From contig JAPONY010000088.1 of assembly GCA_026713705.1 (NCBI GenBank), forward strand, positions 1-39,290: 39,290 nt of DNA, in the 5' to 3' direction. Of this stretch, positions 1-38,780 are shown piece after piece. A program made the position numbers and the translations under genes. This DNA is from Gammaproteobacteria bacterium. GTDB taxonomy: Bacteria; Pseudomonadota; Gammaproteobacteria; Poriferisulfidales; Poriferisulfidaceae. A model generated the notes under the pieces. The model was not told the origin of the DNA, did no database searches, and saw only the letters and a program-made list of their open reading frames with translations. Position 1 is the first letter of the stretch; every line of letters begins with the position of its first letter.

Positions 1-220
1 CCCCGATCTCCGAGCTAACACGATTCTGGCGATTTTGGGGGACCGGAAGGCGTCCGCAGAGAGGTTTTCATACGCGGCTCCGCGCCCGGGCATGGATTTT
101 CTGGCCGCCGGCGCAAGCTCGAGCTGATTTTCGAGGCTTTTCCACAGGGACGCGCAAGGCTCCGCCGACCGCCCGGCCGGGCCGTCTGGATTTCGGGGGG
201 TCCATGCGGTGGGGGGGTCG

Positions 221-1759
221 CTACGGTGGGGCGTGCGCCAGCGTCCGGGTCATTCGCCCCAGTGCCCGATGCACCCGGGACACCCGCGACGGCTGGAACA
301 GCAGCCGTTGCACCCGCGCATGCCGGGTCACCCGGGCGACCAGATGCACCCAGTGGCGGCGCACCTGCTTCATTCGCACCCACAGCCAGTCGCGGCCGAA
401 GGCGCAATGCCGCAGTACCGCGTTGAGGTTCGCCGACAGCACCGCCAGCTGCCACCAGGCCGCATTCGGCCCGAACTTCCCCGACGGCATCAGGCCGCCG
501 GCCAGGTCCTGCTTGAGCACCGCGTGGACCTCTTCGCCATGCCCGCAGCGCTCATGCGCATAACGCACCAGATCGGCCGTCTCCATCGCCGGCCCCGCGC
601 CCTCGTGCGGCGCGATCGGGTAAGGATGGTTGGTCAGATAGACCCGGTGGCGATACGCCGGCGCCCCGTCCGTCGCCGGGCTCTCGTCTTCCCCCAGGCC
701 CAGCTCGCCCGACAACGCGCATCGGGTCGCGACATGACGAAGCAGTTGTCCCGCCTGCGCCGGCCTGGCGCCCCAAGTCGAGACATGGTCCAGGTCCGCA
801 CACTCCAGTTCCGAACCCGGCACCGGACCCCACCACTGCGCCGGCGTCCTCGACAACGACTTCCGCATCCCGTCGTCCAGGTCCGCCGAGCAGACGAAGC
901 CGATCACGCCGAAGCGGCGCAACGCCTCCGGGCGGGATGCCGGCTCGTTGCAGAACCGGATCAGCTTCTGCTGGAAGCCCGCGCCGTCGGCGCGGAGCCC
1001 GACCCGCTTGATTTCCGGCGGCAACTCCGCCAGCCCCTGCTCCAGCAACTCCAGATTGCGCACCTTCGCCGGCACGTTGCCGTCCCGGAACTCCGAGCCC
1101 AGCACCATGCCCAGTTCCGGGCAGAACACCGTCAGCGGCTGGTAGCCCCGCTCCCCGGGGGCTTTGCCGGTCGCGCTGCGGTACGTGTAAAGTGCGTCCC
1201 GCTTGCCGGAGGCCAACACCGTGGCGTCCATGTCCAGGGTCAGTTCGTCCAGCCCCAGAACCTGGACCAGGCGATGCGCCAGGCGCCGCGTCACCGCCGC
1301 GACCGCCTGCAGCTCCGCCGCCGGCTTCGGCACCACCGCTTCCCCTTTCTTCCTCGGCTGCCCCGCCGCCTCGTCCTGGAAGCGCAACAGCCAGTCGTGC
1401 ACCGAGTTCGCCGACGGGAAGGTGCGCCCGCGCCCGCCCCGGAAGCGCCGCGCCAGCATGTCCGCCGGCAGGCCCAGCATCTCCTCTTCGTAGTCCCGCA
1501 CCAGCCGGCACAGGCTGGCATCCTCCTCCAGCGCATCCACGTCCGAGACGTGCTCGTAGCCGACCACGTTCAGCAAGGCCACGGCCAGTATCATCTGGCC
1601 GTCGGTCCAGCCCTGGCGGCCGGCCACCGACACCGGAAGCTCATGAAGTACGCCCGTGCGGCGCAGCAACTCCAGCCACAGCACGACCCCGCCGTGGGCG
1701 CTGGTCTGGTTCAGGTCCGGGTCGCCGGTGATGGCAAACCGGCAGGATGATTTAGTCAT
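221..1759 (-). CDS. IS1380-family DDE transposase
   Basis: The 512-residue protein matches IS1380-family (DDE group 1) transposases in overall pattern. It has an N-terminal segment around GWTDGQMILAVALLNVVGYE, a first acidic site in LDMDATVLAS, a second around LRADGAGFQ, and a C-terminal stretch with CGHGEEVHAVLKQD followed by a hydrophobic helix ending SANLNAVLRH. It catalyses cut-and-paste movement of the enclosing element. The reading frame is intact from an ATG at 1759 to a TAG at 221. It is slightly longer than many relatives (about 430-480 residues). A GGGAG Shine-Dalgarno lies about 9 bases upstream, and its sequence overlaps one arm of a long-range inverted repeat (see the leader entry). 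Confidence 0.88.
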   Translation of the reverse strand: MTKSSCRFAITGDPDLNQTSAHGGVVLWLELLRRTGVLHELPVSVAGRQGWTDGQMILAVALLNVVGYEHVSDVDALEEDASLCRLVRDYEEEMLGLPADMLARRFRGGRGRTFPSANSVHDWLLRFQDEAAGQPRKKGEAVVPKPAAELQAVAAVTRRLAHRLVQVLGLDELTLDMDATVLASGKRDALYTYRSATGKAPGERGYQPLTVFCPELGMVLGSEFRDGNVPAKVRNLELLEQGLAELPPEIKRVGLRADGAGFQQKLIRFCNEPASRPEALRRFGVIGFVCSADLDDGMRKSLSRTPAQWWGPVPGSELECADLDHVSTWGARPAQAGQLLRHVATRCALSGELGLGEDESPATDGAPAYRHRVYLTNHPYPIAPHEGAGPAMETADLVRYAHERCGHGEEVHAVLKQDLAGGLMPSGKFGPNAAWWQLAVLSANLNAVLRHCAFGRDWLWVRMKQVRRHWVHLVARVTRHARVQRLLFQPSRVSRVHRALGRMTRTLAHAPP

Positions 1760-1770
1760 ATAATGGGACT

Positions 1771-1860
1771 CCCGGTTGGTTGGTGTTGATTCACCCAGTG
1801 GGTGAATGGTTTCTACCCTTATTTTAACTGCTGCACGCAGTTACGACACGGCCAACCGGG
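1771..1860 (-). promoter_or_regulatory. Structured leader of the transposase with possible SD sequestration
   Basis: Three nested perfect inverted repeats lie between the right IS end and the transposase start. The outer stem pairs 1771-1779 with 1852-1860 (9 bp). Inside it sit a hairpin at 1789-1807 (8-bp arms, 3-base loop) and one at 1825-1843 (7-bp arms, 5-base loop), giving a three-way-junction shape. Read on the minus strand, the 3' arm of the outer stem ends inside the transposase Shine-Dalgarno. A TAAAAT that could serve as a -10 lies inside the second hairpin region, so native transcripts might lack the 5' arm. The structure is seen directly; the role in blocking read-through expression is inference. 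Confidence 0.5.
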
Positions 1861-1923
1861 GCCTTCCCGCCTTATTTCTACCTGTTAGATCGGAGATCGG
1901 GGGGGTAATATAAGATTTGGAAC

Positions 1924-1952
1924 CGTTAATGTAGATTAACGTCGAATACAAT
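1924..1952 (+). promoter_or_regulatory. Perfect dyad (operator-like) and -10 upstream of the DprA-like gene
   Basis: CGTTAAT and ATTAACG at 1924-1930 and 1935-1941 form a perfect 7-bp inverted repeat separated by GTAG. A TACAAT hexamer follows at 1947-1952, and the dyad covers the place where its -35 would lie. This is the geometry of a repressor site. No regulator gene for it is visible in the window. No good -35 hexamer is seen, so the promoter call is weaker than the dyad. Confidence 0.45.
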
Positions 1953-2032
1953 TGACTTAGAACTTCAACAGATGAAAGAAACAAGATGAATAACCTTGAA
2001 CATGGCTGACAAGTTGAGAGTTGAGAGAAATT

Positions 2033-2938
2033 ATGAATAGCATGCCGATTTTTTCTGCAACACGTGATGATAGTCCCTTTGTTGGTACGCTGGACACTGC
2101 TTTAGAGTTGGGCGCATACGAAGAGTTATGGACACAACCGAAAGCATCCTTCAAAACTCTTGCAACCAAATTCTTTGAATCTGATGATGCCAAGCCATCT
2201 GATTTCGTGTCAGAGGAATCGGCGCGTGAAACCGGGTTGAGGGTCATTCAAAAGTTGCATGAGCGCCTTAGCAGTTGGTTTGGCTTGCGCTTGCAAGGCG
2301 ACCTCGACTATCCAGAGGGTCTAAGAGATGCGACGCATCCTGTCGAGCTCTTATACTTCCAAGGATATTGGGACTTATTAAGTGCGCCATCCGTTTCGGT
2401 TGTCGGCACCAGAAAGCCTTCCAGTGACGGTAGGAAACGAACTCGACAATTGGTCAAAGCATTGGTTGACGACAAATTCAACATTGTGAGTGGGCTGGCT
2501 GAAGGCATTGATACCGAGGCACATAGGGCAGCGATTGAAAATGGTGGTTACACTATTGCCGTAATCGGAACCCCCCTTGGAAACGTCTATCCCAAATCGA
2601 ATGAAACGCTTCAGCGGATAATTGCAGAACATTTTTTGTTGATTAGCCAAGTGCCCGTTGAACGGTACGATATGCAAAATCCTCGCTCCAACCGTTTTTT
2701 CTTTCCTGAGCGCAACAAGACAATGTCAGCACTGACAAAAGCAACCATCATTGTCGAGGCTGGAGAGACATCGGGAACGTTAGTTCAAGCGAGGGAAGCA
2801 CTTCGCCAGAATCGAAAGGTCTTCATCCTGAATAGTTGTTTCGAGAACCCCGCTCTTACTTGGCCTGAGAAATTTGCAGCTAAGGGAGCCATTAGGGTAC
2901 GAGGGTATGACGACATCAGACAAGAGTTGGTCGACTAA
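2033..2938 (+). CDS. DprA/Smf-like SLOG Rossmann-fold protein
   Basis: This 301-residue protein carries the DprA/LOG (SLOG) nucleotide-binding fold: VVGTRKPSSDG, then VSGLAEGIDTEAHRAAI, TIAVIGTPLGNVYP, FFFPERNKTMSAL and VEAGETSGTLVQAREAL, in the order found in DprA. DprA loads RecA onto incoming single-stranded DNA, but this copy is not in a dprA-topA context, has SGLAEGID where DprA usually has SGLARGID, and is followed at once by a phosphoribosyltransferase. A conflict or nucleotide-signalling role, as proposed for other SLOG proteins, is therefore plausible but unproven. I chose ATG 2033 because GAGAGA lies 5-10 bases upstream; a TTG at 2021 is the alternative. Base composition is clearly more AT-rich than in the core genes, which suggests horizontal transfer. 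Confidence 0.8.
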   Translation: MNSMPIFSATRDDSPFVGTLDTALELGAYEELWTQPKASFKTLATKFFESDDAKPSDFVSEESARETGLRVIQKLHERLSSWFGLRLQGDLDYPEGLRDATHPVELLYFQGYWDLLSAPSVSVVGTRKPSSDGRKRTRQLVKALVDDKFNIVSGLAEGIDTEAHRAAIENGGYTIAVIGTPLGNVYPKSNETLQRIIAEHFLLISQVPVERYDMQNPRSNRFFFPERNKTMSALTKATIIVEAGETSGTLVQAREALRQNRKVFILNSCFENPALTWPEKFAAKGAIRVRGYDDIRQELVD

Positions 2939-3592
2939 ACTCCGCGAGATCGGAGAATATGAAAGGAGTGATCACTCTCACCTTCGTGCAGATGACCATT
3001 GCGTATACTTTGGCGAATACACTCCGACAGGTGATTCTGGCAAGCCGGCTTGGTCTCTGAGCAAAGCAAACGACATTCTGGTCAACCTCAAAAAACCTGT
3101 GTCTAGACGCGGCACAGTCCAATGGCGCCATAAGCTTAATGCGATTAGGCTACTTGGTCAGCTAATCCGGGAGAACCTACGCGAAGGTGATCTCCAAAAA
3201 TTAACATTTGTTCCCGCACCACCTTCAACCTCTGAGGGTGGTCCAGGCCACGACCCACGAATGTTGCAAGTAGCACAAGCCATTGATGACGATATAGATG
3301 TCCGCCCAATTCTAGAGACAATCACCACGCGGGAACCGGCAAGTCAGAGCGACACTGCTCGCTCTGTTAGCAGGCTCAAAGCAAACATACGCATAAATGA
3401 AGAGGAAGCAGCACGACTGCCTGCTCCCAAGCAAATCATCGTTCTTGACGATATGGTCACCACCGGGTGACCTATGTTGCTTGCAAAGAGCTTTTGATGG
3501 AATACTTCGGGGATATTGAAGTTTATGGACTGTTTATTGTTCGGCGTGTTCCGTTGAAACCATTTGAAGAGTATGAGCATCCTGATCTCTAG
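2907..3592 (+). pseudogene. ComF-like phosphoribosyltransferase, frameshifted in the PRPP loop
   Basis: The gene starts at ATG 2907 inside the end of the DprA-like gene (32-bp overlap, different frame), so the two are probably co-translated. It has FVPAPPSTSEGG and HDPRM, features of ComF-type enzymes, then the PRPP-binding motif IIVLDDMVTTG. Directly after GGG at 3465-3467 the frame meets TGA at 3468-3470 (187 residues). Read one base back, from 3467, an open frame of 41 codons continues (VTYVACKELLMEYFGDI... to EHPDL) and stops at TAG 3590-3592, which is the expected C-terminal strand and helix. One missing G in the run at 3465 would explain this. It is either a recent inactivation or a sequencing error. 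The substrate is unknown. Confidence 0.75.
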
Positions 3593-3769
3593 CTGCTCGG
3601 AAAACTGCTAAAACGCCTTTCATTGGTCCCCGCAACATGTCCCGAATCCTTAGGACACAGGGAATGGCGTGAGAGAGTTGACGGGACTGTCCCTTATATT
3701 CATTCCGTTTAGCGCTTGCAAACCCTTCTGTATAAGTCCCGATGCACCTGAGAGCGAGTCTTTGGCATG
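3593..3769. other. Intergenic junction between the foreign pair and the core operon
   Basis: No convincing gene lies here. A short GGGA-CTG-TCCC hairpin at 3684-3694 is followed by TTATATT and might be a weak terminator, but the stem is only four base pairs. Composition rises back to the genome-like GC content through this stretch. Confidence 0.4.
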
Positions 3770-3923
3770 TATAATGCGCGTCCGCAGGCTCGCCTGCGAA
3801 ATTCGCGTCCGGACCGACACGAGCGGTGGGTGCCCCCAGGGTTACCGCAAGGGGTTCGGGCAAGTTGACAACCCGCAAGGCTTCGGAACCTGACAACCCG
3901 GAGCCGCTATCAGGAGGGCCGCA
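3770..3923 (+). promoter_or_regulatory. rpsB promoter and structured leader
   Basis: A consensus TATAAT is at 3770-3775, without a clear -35. About 8 bases later a perfect hairpin CGCAGG-CTCG-CCTGCG spans 3783-3798. The remaining leader of roughly 125 bases contains further complementary GGGTT/AACCC-type blocks up to the AGGAGGG ribosome site before ATG 3924. In gammaproteobacteria the rpsB leader is known to be a structured target through which S2 represses rpsB-tsf. That function fits this position, but I have not matched the fold to the known consensus. Confidence 0.5.
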
Positions 3924-5036
3924 ATGCCGTGTGCCACCTTGCGTGAAATGCTGGAAGCCGGTGTCCATTTCGGACATCAGACCCGGTACTGGAATCCCAG
4001 CATGGCGCCGTATATCTTCGGCGAGCGCAACAAGATCCATATCATCAACCTCGAAATCACCCAGCGTATGCTGGACGAGGCCGCAGAACAGGTGCGCCAG
4101 TGGGCGGCCGAAGGCAAGACGATCCTGATCGTCGGCACCAAGCGTGCGGCACAGGACATCGTCAAGGCCAAGGCCGAGGAGTGCGGGATGCCGTACGTCT
4201 CGCAGCGCTGGCTGGGCGGGACGCTGACCAACTTCCACACCGTGCGCAACTCCCTCAAGCGCCTGCAGGACCTCAAGCGCATGGAGGGGGAGAACCTGAT
4301 GGCGCGCATCAGCAAGAAGGAAGCGCTGCGCCTGACCCGCGAAAAGCTCAAGCTGGAGCGCAGCTTGGGCGGCATCGAGGAGATGGAGCGGATTCCGGAC
4401 GCCCTGTTCGTGATCGACGTCCGGTACGAGAACATCGCGGTACGCGAGGCCCGGCGCTTGGATATTCCGGTGGTCGCGATCGTCGACAGCAACAGCTCGG
4501 TCGAAGGCATCGACCGCATCATTCCGGGCAACGACGACGCGATCCGTTCGATTCAGCTCTACATGGACGTGATCAGCGACGCGATCGAGGCCGGGCGCAA
4601 GCAGGCCGAGGAAGAAGGGGTTGCGGTGGAAGCGCCGGCTCCCCGGGAGACTTCGGTCAAGCGCAAGGGCCGACGGGCCAAGCTGCGCGTCGAATCGAAG
4701 GCCGAGCCGAAGGCGGTGGATGCCACCGGCGAAACGGAACCCGAGGCCGAAGCGGCCCCGGCCGAAGATTCGGCTGAACCCGTCGAAGCGGCAGCCCCGG
4801 CCGAAGCGGCAGAGGACTCGGCTGAACCGGTCGAAGCGGAAGCCCAGGCTGAAGCGGCTGAAGATTCGGCTAAACCCGCCGAAGCGGAAGCCCCGGCTAA
4901 AGCGGCAGAGGATTTGGCTGAACCCGTCGAAGCGGAAGCTCAAGCCGAACCGGCCGAGGCAGAGCCTCAGGCCGAAGCGGCAGGGGAACCGGCTGACGAG
5001 GCGGAGCCCGAGCCGGTTGCGGAAGACGCCAAGTAA
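3924..5036 (+). CDS. rpsB: 30S ribosomal protein S2 with long acidic C-terminal repeat tail
   Basis: S2 joins late in 30S assembly and helps bind S1. The core is unmistakable: [15 protein letters not shown] near residues 11-25, [33 protein letters not shown] and PVVAIVDSN. It fills residues 1 to about 230. The family is usually 230-270 residues long; here there are 370. Residues 231-370 form a tail rich in Ala, Glu and Pro. It starts with a basic patch (KRKGRRAK) and then has four 16-residue repeats (residues 280-343) built on [16 protein letters not shown]. An AGGAGGG site lies 6 bases before the ATG. The gene is followed by tsf after 23 bases, the classical rpsB-tsf operon. Confidence 0.97.
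4761..4952 (+). repeat. Four in-frame 48-bp tandem repeats in rpsB
   Basis: Each unit encodes 16 residues of the pattern AED(S/L)A(E/K)P(V/A)EA(A/E)A(P/Q)A(E/K)(A/P). The copies have diverged slightly. They lie wholly inside the S2 tail and keep the frame, so copy number could change without breaking the gene. Confidence 0.8.
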
Positions 5037-16529: not shown

Positions 16530-16679
16530 ATGGAGTGGACAGTTGCGCTTGATTCGCTTGCCGGGCAGGAACCTGAGGTCTTGGCGGCCGGGCAAAGTGA
16601 GAGTGCGTCCGCTCTTGGTATCATGGGGGTGTTCTCATGGCTTTTGGGCGCGAAATCGGGATGGAGTTCGAACGAGTGA
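16530..16679 (+). pseudogene. Possible remnant of a HigB/RelE-type toxin gene
   Basis: An ATG directly behind the promoter opens a 49-codon frame starting MEWTVALDSLAGQEPEVLAA. The beginning resembles, from memory, the N-terminus of Gp49/HigB-like toxins (MEWTV followed by a strand and an EFEAL-type helix). The rest does not, and the frame runs into the next gene. A HigA-type antitoxin lies 376 bases further on without a partner. The identification is weak; it may be a non-coding leader. Confidence 0.25.
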
Positions 16680-16963
16680 AAGTGAGTCCCGAGATGGTTG
16701 GGATTGCCAGCGGGGGAGTGGCTATCCTCGCGTTCATGCTGGCGCTGTTCGTGCTTATTTGGAACCTTGGCCAAAACATAGGCGATCTGCGCACGGACAT
16801 GAGCGATCTGCGCACAGAGCTAAAGGGTGAAATTGCCACGCTTCGAACGGAAGTGTTTGGCGAGATCGCAAATCTCAACGAGCGCATGGCGCACATCGAA
16901 GGTCTGCTTGAAGGATACATTGAGCGGTCCCGGACCGGGGATGGCGTTGCGGCAACCGAATGA
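16637..16963 (+). CDS. Small membrane-anchored coiled-coil protein
   Basis: No family is recognised with certainty. The 108-residue protein has one strongly hydrophobic segment (about residues 18-40, GIASGGVAILAFMLALFVLI), then a polar coiled coil with an 11-residue period (LRTELKGEIAT, LRTEVFGEIAN, LNERMAHIEG). It probably sits in the inner membrane with the coil in the cytoplasm or periplasm. An ATG at 16661 (MEFERVKVS) is an alternative start. Similar short TM-coil proteins occur next to toxin-antitoxin genes, but a function is not known to me. A protein of the same design lies at 17441. Confidence 0.6.
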   Translation: MAFGREIGMEFERVKVSPEMVGIASGGVAILAFMLALFVLIWNLGQNIGDLRTDMSDLRTELKGEIATLRTEVFGEIANLNERMAHIEGLLEGYIERSRTGDGVAATE

Positions 16964-17055
16964 TCCGGCCGGATAGGTCTTTCGTCTTTGCAGCCGAGTG
17001 ATTCTACTGAGCGAGAAGATCGATCTGGAGTTCCGGGCAATAACTGGGAGTTTTT

Positions 17056-17406
17056 GTGGACAGTAAAACACCGAAGACTTTGGAGGAGGTGCTGAATCAG
17101 CTTTCTCCTGAGCATCGTAAGCAAATTAACGAACGAACCGACGAACTGATTGCCGAAATCATGTCGCTGCAGGACTTGCGGAAAGTCCGGGAGCAGACTC
17201 AGGAGCACGTCGCCGAGGTGCTCGGAATCACCCAGGAGAATGTCTCGCGCATTGAGAAGCGCCGGGACCTGTTGGTCTCGACGCTCAGACGGCAAGTCGA
17301 AGCCCTGGGCGGACAGCTGAGCCTGATCGCGAAGTTTCCCGACCGCCCCCCGGTCAAACTGGCTGGCATTGCAGGCTTGGGCGATGGCGGGGCCTGCGGT
17401 CAATGA
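17056..17406 (+). CDS. XRE-family HigA-like antitoxin/regulator (orphan)
   Basis: The 116-residue protein has a helical N-terminus (TLEEVLNQLSPEHRKQINERTDELI), a helix-turn-helix at about residues 48-70 (EHVAEVLGITQENVSRIEKR) and the tail STLRRQVEALGGQLSLIAKF followed by PDRPPVKL. That tail is typical of HigA-type antitoxins that sit behind a Gp49/HigB toxin. Such proteins neutralise the toxin and repress their own operon. No intact toxin gene precedes it. The start is GTG 17056, with GGGAG about 8 bases upstream. Confidence 0.75.
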   Translation: MDSKTPKTLEEVLNQLSPEHRKQINERTDELIAEIMSLQDLRKVREQTQEHVAEVLGITQENVSRIEKRRDLLVSTLRRQVEALGGQLSLIAKFPDRPPVKLAGIAGLGDGGACGQ

Positions 17407-17440
17407 CGAAACCTGTTCGACAGGTACGGGGTGATCTGGA

Positions 17441-17806
17441 ATGGACAGAAACGTCACATTCGGAGAGATGCTTACGCTGGGCGTCCTTGTGTCGACGTTT
17501 TTGGCTGGTGGGTATGTCTTGCGCTCAGACATCGCTCGGGTAGAGGTTGAGCTAAGCGCGAAGATTTTTCAGGTGGAGGCTGAACTGAGCGAGAAGATCT
17601 CTCAAGTTCAGGTTGAACTGGGCGAGAAAGTCTCTCAGTTGCAGGAGCGCGTGGCGGTTGTCGAAACTATGGTGCGTCACCCCGCGAGGAGAGCAGAGTC
17701 GGAGGCACCCGGACCTGCTGGCGAGGAATTCACGTATGGTGAGTCGTGCTCTACGGGGGGCGATTGCGGATTTGGTCCGCCCCGTTCGGTTACTGATCAG
17801 GATTGA
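17441..17806 (+). CDS. Small membrane-anchored coiled-coil protein with 11-residue repeats
   Basis: The 121-residue protein has an N-terminal hydrophobic segment (about residues 9-27, EMLTLGVLVSTFLAGGYVL). Three 11-residue repeats follow (VEVELSAKIFQ, VEAELSEKISQ, VQVELGEKVSQ; residues 34-66), giving a right-handed or hendecad coiled coil. The last third is low-complexity and holds two Cys (SCSTGGDCG). Its design matches the protein at 16637. No function is known to me. It starts 34 bases after the HigA-like gene. Confidence 0.55.
   Translation: MDRNVTFGEMLTLGVLVSTFLAGGYVLRSDIARVEVELSAKIFQVEAELSEKISQVQVELGEKVSQLQERVAVVETMVRHPARRAESEAPGPAGEEFTYGESCSTGGDCGFGPPRSVTDQD
17540..17638 (+). repeat. 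Three 33-bp repeats encoding hendecad coiled coil
   Basis: Three consecutive in-frame 33-base units encode V(E/Q)(V/A)EL(S/G)(A/E)K(I/V)(F/S)Q. They are diverged at the DNA level, so the duplication is not very recent. Confidence 0.6.
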
Positions 17807-17957
17807 TTTTTTCCCGACCGTTCTTCAGCCGAGTTGGGCGGTATTGCGGGCTGAGTGACAGCGGGCTTTCGGCGGAGGCGTGAAATTTTGTGCTCTGATG
17901 TCAGTGCTCGCTCAAGGGAAACTTGGCTAGGTGCCGTGCACAAAACCTACCAAGCAC

Positions 17958-17974
17958 TATAATGTGACTACATT
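17958..17974 (+). promoter_or_regulatory. -10 box and operator-like dyad of the Phd/PIN pair
   Basis: A consensus TATAAT at 17958-17963 is overlapped by AATGT-GACT-ACATT (17961-17974), a perfect 5-bp inverted repeat with the TGT...ACA core known from YefM/Phd operators. It lies 19 bases before the antitoxin ATG. This fits autorepression by the antitoxin. No good -35 is seen. Confidence 0.5.
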
Positions 17975-17992
17975 GGTCTTTTTTGGTGTGAC

Positions 17993-18235
17993 ATGCAAGA
18001 AATCCAGTTGCGCGAAGCAAAGGCGAAGTTGTCCGCCATTGTCGAGAACGCATACCATGGGACAACCGCGGTGATTACTCGTCACGGCAAGCCTCGAGCG
18101 GTTATCTTGGGGGTTGACGAATGGGATCGTCTCCGCCGAGTACCTTCTTTCGGAGAGTTGCTGATGTCGGCCCCTTTGGAAGAGAGGGATTTGCCGAAAC
18201 GAGACACAAGCCCCCCGCGTGACATCGAATTCTAG
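17993..18235 (+). CDS. Phd/YefM-type antitoxin
   Basis: The 80-residue protein begins MQEIQLREAKAKLSAIVENA and continues GTTAVITRHGKPRAVILGV and DEWDRLR, the pattern of the Phd/YefM DNA-binding fold. The C-terminal segment (about residues 55-80, acidic then PPRDIEF) would wrap the toxin. It probably represses its own promoter through the dyad at 17961-17974 and neutralises the PIN toxin, whose gene follows after a few bases. Confidence 0.88.
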   Translation: MQEIQLREAKAKLSAIVENAYHGTTAVITRHGKPRAVILGVDEWDRLRRVPSFGELLMSAPLEERDLPKRDTSPPRDIEF

Positions 18236-18243
18236 GAGTGGCT

Positions 18244-18687
18244 GTGTACCTTATGGACACAGATGTGCTTTCGCTTGGTGCGCCCGACCGGCCTGATTCG
18301 TCTACCCTGAGATGGATGCACGTGCACTCCGGGAGCCTCTTCATGTCAGCAGTCAGTGTGGCAGAAATCTCTACCGGAATTACCAAACTTGAACAGACCG
18401 GGGCAAAAGTCAGGGCTGCCAATCTTGGCAAATGGCTAGACCTGGTACTTCACCTCTACGGTGAACGGGTGCTACCGTTCGAGGCTTCCACGGCACGTCT
18501 GGCAGGAAGGTTGATCGGCCGGACACGCGCGGCCGGGTATTCTCCGGGGTTTGCCGATGCCGCGGTCGCAGCCACGGCCGGGAGCTACGGCCTGACGGTG
18601 CTGACCCGAAATCTGCGGGACTTCATCCCCCTTGGGGTGGATGTGCTGGATCCTCTGGACACATTGCCTCCGCCGCTAGAAATGTGA
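18244..18687 (+). CDS. PIN-domain ribonuclease toxin (VapC/FitB-like)
   Basis: PIN toxins cut tRNA or mRNA when the antitoxin is lost. The 147-residue protein has the acidic site Asp5 (LMDTDVLS), Glu41 (SVAEIS), Asp105 (GFADAAVAATA) and the TRNLRDF motif near residue 121, so it looks catalytically intact. I prefer GTG 18244 because AGGAG lies 5 bases upstream; GTG 18238 would add two residues. It is encoded directly behind the Phd-type antitoxin and points toward lpxB. Confidence 0.87.
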   Translation: MYLMDTDVLSLGAPDRPDSSTLRWMHVHSGSLFMSAVSVAEISTGITKLEQTGAKVRAANLGKWLDLVLHLYGERVLPFEASTARLAGRLIGRTRAAGYSPGFADAAVAATAGSYGLTVLTRNLRDFIPLGVDVLDPLDTLPPPLEM

Positions 18688-18694
18688 TGGCTGA

Positions 18695-18729
18695 CGGAGG
18701 CAGGCATCCTAGATGGCTGTTCGCCTCCG
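18695..18729. terminator. Hairpin between convergent toxin and lpxB genes
   Basis: CGGAGGC (18695-18701) and GCCTCCG (18723-18729) pair perfectly around a 21-base loop that itself holds CATC-CTA-GATG. A second copy of TGCCTCCG at 18665-18672 could pair with the same left arm. There is no clear T tract on either strand, so a terminator role is only suggested by the position between convergent genes. Confidence 0.35.
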
Positions 18730-36779: not shown

Positions 36780-36818
36780 TTGACTCGGTACTGAATGGAA
36801 TGCCACGGAGCGAAGGGC

Positions 36819-37565
36819 GTGAGCGCGAGGAAATTTGCCGTATTTCCAGGGGTTTTGGCGGGTTTGGCACTGGCTGTCGCGCAGCCGGCGCTGACCCAGT
36901 CTTCCCTGCACGAGGCGGCCCGGGCGGGAAATCTCGCGGAAGTGCAGCAGTTGCTGGATGCCGGGGCCCGGGTGGACCTGAAGGGGCACAACGGCATGAC
37001 GGCATTGCACTTCGCGGTGGTCGACCCGACCCCGATGACTACGATGATGCGGTCAAGTGGCGAGGTGGACGCGGAGGCCGAATCCGACCACACCGCGCAG
37101 CGTTTGGCGGTGATCCAGCTGCTGCTGGACGCCGGGGCGACGGCGTATTCGAAGAACGAGGACGGCCTGACGCCGTTGCACCTGGCGGCGGGCCACCACG
37201 AGGACCCGGAGATTTTGGAGACGCTGCTGATGGCCGGGGTCTTCGCGGACGCGAGGGCCGAGAACGACGCGACCCCCCTGCATTTTGCGGGGGCCTTCAA
37301 CGGGAACCCGGAGGTGGCGCAGGTGCTTCTGGACTTCGGGGCGGAAGTGGATGCGGTGGACATCGGGGGCGTGACCCCCCTGCACCTGGCCGCCCGCTTC
37401 AACCGGCATGCCTTGGTCGCCCAGGTGTTGCTGGATGCCGGCGCGGATGTGAATGCCAAAGACCGGAAAGGCCTGACCCCGCTGGATCACCACGCGGAGA
37501 GGGAAGATTCCGGCTGGTCCCAGACGCTCGAGGACGCCGGCGGGAAGTGCAACCGGAGTTGTTGA
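36819..37565 (+). CDS. Exported ankyrin-repeat protein
   Basis: The 248-residue protein begins with a signal peptide (SARKFAVFPGVLAGLALAVA, cleavage near ALT/QSS). It then has about five ankyrin repeats, for example SLHEAARAGNLAEVQQLLDA, GLTPLHLAAGHH, ATPLHFAGAFNGNPEVAQVL and GVTPLHLAARFNRHALVAQV. A roughly 25-residue insertion (VDPTPMTTMMRSSGEVDAEA and following) breaks the second repeat. The last residues hold two Cys (CNRSC). Ankyrin repeats bind proteins; the partner is unknown, and the product is probably periplasmic. GTG 36819 is preferred because GGAG and AAGG lie just upstream; ATG 36795 would put eight polar residues before the signal peptide. Confidence 0.82.
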   Translation: MSARKFAVFPGVLAGLALAVAQPALTQSSLHEAARAGNLAEVQQLLDAGARVDLKGHNGMTALHFAVVDPTPMTTMMRSSGEVDAEAESDHTAQRLAVIQLLLDAGATAYSKNEDGLTPLHLAAGHHEDPEILETLLMAGVFADARAENDATPLHFAGAFNGNPEVAQVLLDFGAEVDAVDIGGVTPLHLAARFNRHALVAQVLLDAGADVNAKDRKGLTPLDHHAEREDSGWSQTLEDAGGKCNRSC

Positions 37566-37748
37566 GAAACCGGAATCAGTTTTGGGCAATGACTTCCGAC
37601 AGGGCTTCGGTGTTTTCCCAAGACACGGGGGAAAGAAGCCGTTTACGCACTGCTGATGAGAAACACCTGCTATCATCCTTATTGGCAATAGGGAATGGAG
37701 TTCCCTGTCGTTGCTTCCCTGAACAATGAAAGACAAGAGGTTACCCAA
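37566..37748. other. Intergenic region with short inverted repeats
   Basis: No gene is seen. TTTCCC (37613-37618) can pair with GGGAAA (37628-37633), and GGGAA-TGGAG-TTCCC forms a small hairpin at 37691-37705, 44 bases before the next ATG. I found no known riboswitch consensus. Confidence 0.35.
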
Positions 37749-38780
37749 ATGAAATCGAAATGTTTTGCTTTCGTGTCGGCTGTCATGCTGACTACCGTTG
37801 CAAGCTTCGCAGTTGCTGGAGACTATGGAGGACACAAGGAGAGGCACCATAAAGGGCACCATGGCCAGAGTTCATTTATCGAGCGATACGACCAGAACGA
37901 TGATGCCCAGGTGACTGCGGATGAATTCGAGCAGGCGCGCCGGGCTCGCTACGACCTGATCGACGAAAACGGCAATGGCTTGGTCGATGTCGACGAGTAC
38001 GTTCAAGGGTGCGCCAACCGCCTGGACAAGAAAATCAAAAAGGAACGCAAGGGACACATCAAGCGGACCCACCGGCGCTTTGACGCCCTGGACAAGGACG
38101 ACAGCGAACAGATAGAGTGGGAGGAATACGAGGCGTCAGGCGAACGCATTTTCAAGCGGTTCGACGGGGACGAAAACGGCGTCATCAACGCGGACGACCC
38201 GCGCCCCAAGCGCCATTGCAAACATAAGTGCAAGGGCTACAAAGGCAAAGGGAAGGGCGACAGGGCAGAGGCCGGCCACGATCACGAGCACGAAAAGGGC
38301 CACAAGCACGGCAAGCACAAGGGCATGTGGAAAAAGCATGCGAAGCGGGTCATTCACATGCCGACCACCCACAGAAAGAAAGGGATGATGCGGAAGTACG
38401 ACACCGATCAGGACGGTGCGATCACGCATGAGGAATTCAGCGCCCAGCGCCGCGCCGACTTTGACCGGACGGACGAGAACGGGGACGGGAAGCTGAACCC
38501 GGAGGAGTATGCGCTGGAGTTCGGCAACCGTCTGGACGAGGCAATTGAGAAGACCCAGAAGGAAAAACTGGAGCGGGCAAAGGTGCGCTTCGGCATGCTG
38601 GACGAGGACGAGAATGGCGAGACGAGTTTCGAGGAGTACCAGGCTTCAGGGCAGAAGATGTTTTCACGCCACGACACGAATGAAGATGGCGTCGTGTCCG
38701 AAAGTGATCCCAAGCCCAAGCATAAATGCCGCAGGGACAAGCATAAACACGGGAAGGGGCATAAGGGCCACTCCGAGTAA
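37749..38780 (+). CDS. Exported EF-hand protein, duplicated, with His/Cys-rich linkers
   Basis: The 343-residue precursor has a signal peptide cleaved near residue 23 (ASFAVA/G). Eight 12-residue EF-hand loops follow in two sets of four: residues 48-59, 72-83, 115-126, 139-150, and 218-229, 242-253, 285-296, 309-320. Most carry D-x-(D/N)-x-(D/N)-G; loops 1 and 3 lack the central Gly. The two halves (about 44-160 and 214-327) are clearly related, e.g. YEASGERIFKRFDGDENG versus YQASGQKMFSRHDTNEDG. Between and around them lie His/Lys/Cys-rich stretches (residues 29-39, 155-208, 324-342). It probably binds Ca2+ and also transition metals in the periplasm. AAGAGG lies before ATG 37749. Confidence 0.85.
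   Translation: MKSKCFAFVSAVMLTTVASFAVAGDYGGHKERHHKGHHGQSSFIERYDQNDDAQVTADEFEQARRARYDLIDENGNGLVDVDEYVQGCANRLDKKIKKERKGHIKRTHRRFDALDKDDSEQIEWEEYEASGERIFKRFDGDENGVINADDPRPKRHCKHKCKGYKGKGKGDRAEAGHDHEHEKGHKHGKHKGMWKKHAKRVIHMPTTHRKKGMMRKYDTDQDGAITHEEFSAQRRADFDRTDENGDGKLNPEEYALEFGNRLDEAIEKTQKEKLERAKVRFGMLDEDENGETSFEEYQASGQKMFSRHDTNEDGVVSESDPKPKHKCRRDKHKHGKGHKGHSE

What the first reader, a model, noticed from the sequence alone, without database searches (positions are those of the whole stretch)
1924..3592. Foreign DprA/SLOG-phosphoribosyltransferase pair beside an IS
Two overlapping genes, a DprA-like Rossmann protein and a ComF-like phosphoribosyltransferase, form a compact AT-rich unit between an IS1380 element and the GC-rich rpsB operon. 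The pair is not in a competence context. SLOG proteins have been proposed as nucleotide-binding or nucleotide-producing parts of conflict systems, and a PRTase partner that handles PRPP or nucleotides would fit a two-gene defence or signalling unit. The pairing and composition are seen; the role is inferred.
Basis: partly seen in the sequence, partly recalled or inferred. Interest (0 to 1): 0.75.

Follow-up and report, generated by a model that had tools for sequence, protein, structure and literature searches.

The report
ShosTA defence pair with broken toxin
This is a known kind of two-gene bacterial anti-phage toxin-antitoxin system (ShosTA) in a small layered defence island; in this genome the toxin gene is broken by a frame shift, so it is an ordinary and probably inactive member of a described family.

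Summary
The pair is real. Gene 1 (2033-2938) is a ShosA antitoxin (PADLOC E=1e-94). Gene 2 (from 2907) is a ShosT phosphoribosyltransferase (PADLOC E=1e-23). They overlap by 32 bp, are AT-rich (47% vs 65% GC) and lie between an IS and rpsB.

Its frame stops right after the PRPP loop (DDMVTTG-stop) and the rest follows in another frame; all 15 relatives read are open at that point, though one (L015) breaks a few codons later. (ii) The pair belongs to a HAD-less, ComF-like ShosT branch, shorter than the studied HAD-PRTase ShosT. (iii) The map-rpsB gap is a variable defence site in this genus: vapBC in two genomes; a BsuBI/PstI-type restriction pair plus Mrr in two; here vapBC, the same restriction pair, the IS and shosAT (contig join inferred from a 5-bp target duplication and synteny). 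(iv) No housekeeping DprA was found in the genus.

Best reading: a horizontally acquired ShosTA whose toxin was recently inactivated, or an assembly error. Known kind, low interest.

The parts
1..1902 (-). Insertion sequence of IS1380 type (transposase 221-1759 -), ends CCCCGATCTCCGA.CTAACA, left end at the contig end
Evidence: Terminal inverted repeats read at 1-20 and 1883-1902; Pfam DDE_Tnp_1_4 E=2e-14; further copies on contigs C67, C96 and ends on C92, C49.
1903..1907 (.). Target duplication GGGTA; the same five bases flank the IS end on contig C92 (but not on C49)
2033..2938 (+). shosA, DprA-like antitoxin, 301 aa, intact
   Evidence: PADLOC ShosA E=1.1e-94; Pfam DNA_processg_A; below the curated cut-off for DprA; 54-79% identity to eight paired relatives
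2907..3470 (+). shosT, 5' part, 187 codons up to the PRPP loop DDMVTTG, then TGA
   Evidence: PADLOC ShosT E=1.1e-23; 64% identity to L012 over 187 aa
3467..3592 (+). shosT, 3' part (VTYVACKELL...), displaced into the -1 frame, stop TAG 3590-3592
   Evidence: 71% identity to the C-terminal part of the L012 ShosT over 31 aa; dN 0.20 vs dS 1.65 in its own frame
3455..3472 (+). Perfect 7-bp hairpin GGTCACC-ACCG-GGTGACC around the break
3762..3923 (+). Right edge of the insert: DNA shared by the genus starts here, just before the TATAAT box (3770-3775) of rpsB

Best explanation
A horizontally acquired ShosTA toxin-antitoxin anti-phage system of a HAD-less (short ShosT) branch, inserted in the map-rpsB defence site of this genus, whose toxin gene was recently inactivated by a one-base net frame shift. 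How an intact copy most likely works: ShosA, a DprA-like DNA-binding protein, keeps ShosT harmless; phage replication relieves this; ShosT then uses PRPP to disturb the purine nucleotide pool, DNA is damaged and the infected cell stops growing. Shown here: family, pairing, site, break, fold. Reported for the long ShosT: PRTase and pyrophosphatase activity, purine disturbance, DNA damage, DNA binding by ShosA, phage triggers. Inferred: that the short ShosT works in the same way through its PRTase alone, and that this copy is dead, because the frame loses the end of the phosphate loop, the following helix and the last core strand.
For: PADLOC ShosA and ShosT. 15/15 relatives paired and open at the break. 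Solved ShosA 8zva and ShosT 8zvc among the best structural matches. Literature: PMC9122126, PMC10732053, PMC12593503. Defence site. Break with selection up to recent times. Elements lost after residue 187: helix 188-200 and strand 205-214.
Against: The break may be an assembly error (draft assembly, 98 contigs). No activity was measured. The HAD part that carries the pyrophosphatase in the long ShosT (inferred from Pfam on L014) is absent in this branch, so the mechanism may differ. ShosA model confidence is moderate (pLDDT 74.5).
Confidence: 0.85

Rival explanations
1. The stop in shosT is a one-base assembly or sequencing error; the organism has an open shosT and a working ShosTA.
For: The break sits in a G run inside a perfect hairpin. 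Both parts of the gene show purifying selection on either side of the break. All family-invariant residues before the break are kept.
Against: A second genome, Ensifer L015, has its own frame shift a few codons further on, and many E. coli genomes keep only pieces of the pair, so real decay of this toxin is common.
Confidence: 0.35
2. The pair is a housekeeping or competence DprA with a ComF-like partner.
For: DprA fold and ComF as the nearest PRTase structure.
Against: Below the curated DprA cut-off (165 vs 191 bits); absent from four genus relatives; foreign composition; relatives on phages and plasmids.
Confidence: 0.02
3. The SLOG protein makes or senses a nucleotide signal and the PRTase is its effector.
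For: LOG-type SLOG folds appear in the structural list at E about 1e-5; a weak Pfam LDcluster4 match just at its cut-off.
Against: DprA and ShosA match far better (E 6e-16 to 2e-12); the studied ShosA is reported to bind DNA.
Confidence: 0.05
4. Programmed -1 frameshifting joins the two parts of shosT.
For: The two frames overlap and the second is conserved.
Against: No slippery heptamer before the stop (ATG GTC ACC ACC GGG TGA), and 14 of 15 relatives read the whole protein in one frame.
Confidence: 0.02

Closest known systems
ShosTA, short branch (PADLOC PDLC03961/PDLC03962), e.g. E. coli M19 WP_001367158 + WP_000175354, Burkholderia phage Mana CPT_Mana_051/052
   Same: Gene order, overlap or tight spacing, protein sizes, 55-56% ShosA identity, the same two PADLOC models
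   Different: ShosT frame broken here; site is map-rpsB beside restriction genes
ShosTA, long branch (E. coli APEC O1 ShosA 8zva; ShosT 8zvb-8zvd, 432 aa)
   Same: DprA-like ShosA fold; PRTase part of ShosT aligns at Z 9.2-11.2
   Different: The long ShosT carries an extra N-terminal HAD-like part; ShosA sequence similarity is low (77 bits)
PsyrTA / RqlHI (DprA-like antitoxin with helicase-PRTase toxin)
   Same: DprA-like antitoxin, PRTase toxin (PMC4670107); PsyrA model matches at E=1e-27
   Different: No helicase here; toxin gene order reversed (rqlH precedes rqlI)
Competence proteins DprA and ComF
   Same: Folds of both proteins
   Different: No competence context, below the DprA cut-off, mobile distribution

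Membership tests
ShosTA | DprA-like ShosA matching the ShosA profile | tested here: met
   PDLC03961 E=1.1e-94, 315 bits
ShosTA | Adjacent PRTase ShosT gene | tested here: met
   PDLC03962 E=1.1e-23 on the 5' part; relatives paired 15/15
ShosTA | Complete PRTase reading frame | tested here: not met
   TGA after DDMVTTG, rest in another frame: member by descent, not a complete system as assembled
ShosTA, long branch | HAD-like part before the PRTase | tested here: not met
   ShosT of this branch is about 200-240 aa and aligns only to residues ~159-365 of the 432-aa ShosT; HAD match only in the long relative
ShosTA | Toxicity of ShosT, rescue by ShosA, phage protection | not testable with these tools
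   Needs expression and plaque assays
Transformation DprA | Score over the curated TIGR00732 cut-off | tested here: not met
   165.4 vs 191.15 bits
Transformation DprA | Core gene of the lineage | tested here: not met
   No PF02481 match in four near-complete genus relatives
PsyrTA / RqlHI | RecQ-like helicase fused to the PRTase | tested here: not met
   ShosT is a small single-domain PRTase

The most novel reading that the evidence does not exclude
The HAD-less, ComF-like ShosT branch is a mechanistically separate ShosTA type in which the PRTase alone is the toxin, without the pyrophosphatase step reported for the long ShosT; Rhizobiaceae loci that carry both types tail to tail suggest that they do different jobs.
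Probability: 0.3. Interest if true: 0.45.

Novelty: new member of a known kind. Interest (0 to 1): 0.22.

Why it matters
It puts a named, testable defence system into a small-genome lineage and shows a genus-wide defence site between map and rpsB in which VapBC, restriction-modification, Mrr and ShosTA stack on or replace each other. The HAD-less branch would allow a direct test of which part of ShosT is toxic. The finding itself is ordinary.

Tried and rejected
Housekeeping DprA/ComF, a nucleotide-signalling SLOG unit and programmed frameshifting were weighed and rejected (see rivals). A scan of IMG/VR with ShosA gave no relative, although named phages carry it. Pfam and NCBIfam have no match to the truncated PRTase, and a PDB sequence search with the short ShosT gave nothing or only weak PRTase matches; PADLOC and the fold recognise it. 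The primary paper on the ShosTA mechanism (Pu et al. 2025, Nat Commun 16:3141) is not held and is cited through a review. Whether the P2-phage pair tested in PMC9122126 is of the long or the short branch could not be settled from the main text. Contig C49 was tested as the left neighbour of the IS and rejected: its flank (AGTGT) does not match the target duplication.

Full report
The observation. Two overlapping genes lie on the + strand at 2033-2938 and from 2907 on. The first is a DprA-family protein (Pfam DNA_processg_A E=9.8e-57). The second, as truncated, has no Pfam or NCBIfam match but ends in the classic PRPP loop VLDDMVTTG. The block 1908-3760 has 47.4% GC; every stretch of that length to its right has at least 55.5%. 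An IS (1-1902) lies on the left and rpsB on the right. But the second frame meets TGA at 3468, directly after DDMVTTG. The rest of the protein (VTYVACKELLMEYFGDIEVYGLFIVRRV...) is in the -1 frame and ends at 3590-3592.

What it is. PADLOC names the proteins ShosA (E=1.1e-94) and ShosT (E=1.1e-23); the PsyrA model and the other ShosA model are far weaker. The first protein scores under the curated cut-off for true DprA. A genome scan gave 35 loci. The eight with 54-79% identity all have the PRTase gene directly downstream; none of the 27 weaker ones (at most 44%) shows a match to it. With seven plasmid and phage records, 15 of 15 pairs have the PRTase frame open across the point where the window's frame stops. 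One of the 15, Ensifer L015, has a frame shift of its own a few codons further on.

What is known. A DprA plus PRTase pair from a P2-like phage protects E. coli against T7 and lambda, and DprA homologues act as antitoxins in shosTA, psyrTA and rqlHI (PMC9122126). A review summarises later work: ShosT is a phosphoribosyltransferase and pyrophosphatase that disturbs purine metabolism and leads to DNA duplications and death; ShosA binds DNA; T7 Gp0.7 is a trigger (Pu et al. 2025, cited in PMC12593503). A phage single-stranded-DNA-binding protein is also named as an activator (PMC10732053). In RqlHI the PRTase part is needed for toxicity (PMC4670107). Structures of ShosA and ShosT are in the PDB.

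Which branch. The characterised ShosT has 432 aa. In the intact relatives of this branch ShosT has about 200-240 aa. The model of the L012 ShosT (pLDDT 86.6) aligns best with H. pylori ComF (Z 12.8) and with residues about 159-365 of ShosT (Z 9.2-11.2); other PRTases reach at most 7.9. A long ShosT in Rhizobium L014 has a HAD-like match before its PRTase part. So this is a HAD-less ShosTA branch. In Rhizobiaceae loci L013, L014, L061 and L066 a long and a short pair stand tail to tail.

The break. Against L012, shosA has dN 0.14 with saturated dS; the part of shosT before the break has dN 0.29 and dS 2.1; the part after it, in its own frame, has dN 0.20 and dS 1.65. All 20 family-invariant residues before the break are kept; the two after it are lost from the frame. 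So the gene was under selection until very recently. The break sits in a G run inside a perfect 7-bp hairpin, where a real indel and a sequencing error are both plausible. The shortened protein would lack helix 188-200 and strand 205-214 of the model and is, I infer, inactive. ShosA alone should be harmless.

The site. The window is contig C88 from its first base. Homology with four genus relatives starts at 3762-3766, just before the TATAAT box of rpsB. In the relatives map lies on the other side of the gap. G015 and G019 have only vapBC there (Pfam VapB_antitoxin and PIN for the G019 pair). G017 and G018 have an Eco57I-type methylase, a BsuBI/PstI endonuclease and an Mrr enzyme (PADLOC E 5e-200, 4e-146 and 3e-74 for G017, with G018 96% identical DNA). 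In this genome map is on contig C92, which begins with 141 bases of the same IS. C92 carries vapBC and the same restriction pair, 87% identical DNA to G017 over 4.1 kb. The five bases next to the IS are GGGTA both on C92 and at 1903-1907; the other candidate contig, C49, does not match. From overlap, duplication and synteny I infer the order map, vapBC, restriction pair, IS, shosAT, rpsB. ShosAT thus stands where G017 and G018 have Mrr.

Competence. The genome shows one DprA-family gene, this one. Four genus relatives show none. A fifth, G016, has a ShosA of about 60% identity cut by a contig end.

Context of relatives. Phage Mana (Peduoviridae) and phage Riah carry the pair, and so do conjugative and other plasmids. 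L061 lies beside a CBASS cyclase and a patatin-type effector. L017 and L019 lie beside relaxase genes, L019 also near a resolvase, and L012 beside Fic, AAA/DUF4143 and PIN genes. In E. coli, 37 of 5,426 genomes hold most of the pair, while several hundred hold only pieces, typically the 3' part of shosT beside an IS30 remnant. Decay of this system is therefore common elsewhere too.

Verdict. A real defence pair of a known kind, of a less-studied branch, in a variable defence site, with a broken toxin gene as assembled.

Noticed in passing
window 3762-3775; L053-L056: Defence inserts in four genus relatives and here all end within about 10 bases of the rpsB TATAAT box, so the upstream half of the rpsB promoter differs between genomes.
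   Followed up: partly
L013, L014, L061, L066: A long (HAD-PRTase) and a short ShosTA stand tail to tail on Rhizobiaceae replicons, in L061 next to CBASS.
   Followed up: partly
L015:7391-7540: An independent frame shift in shosT a few codons after the same PRPP loop in Ensifer sp. MPMI2T.
   Followed up: partly
L073:4759-5453: Hundreds of E. coli genomes, many O157, O26 and O111, keep only a 3' shosT remnant beside an IS30 remnant.
   Followed up: partly
window 4758-4959: RpsB ends in a long acidic Ala/Glu/Pro extension coded by a 48-bp tandem repeat, about 4 copies.
   Followed up: no
window 36795-38780: An ankyrin-repeat protein followed by an EF-hand protein in a GC dip at the right end.
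   Followed up: no
window 16600-18700: GC dip to 55% with a 33-bp tandem repeat at 17544-17645, between an lpxA-like and an lpxB-like gene (names from reading the translations).
   Followed up: no
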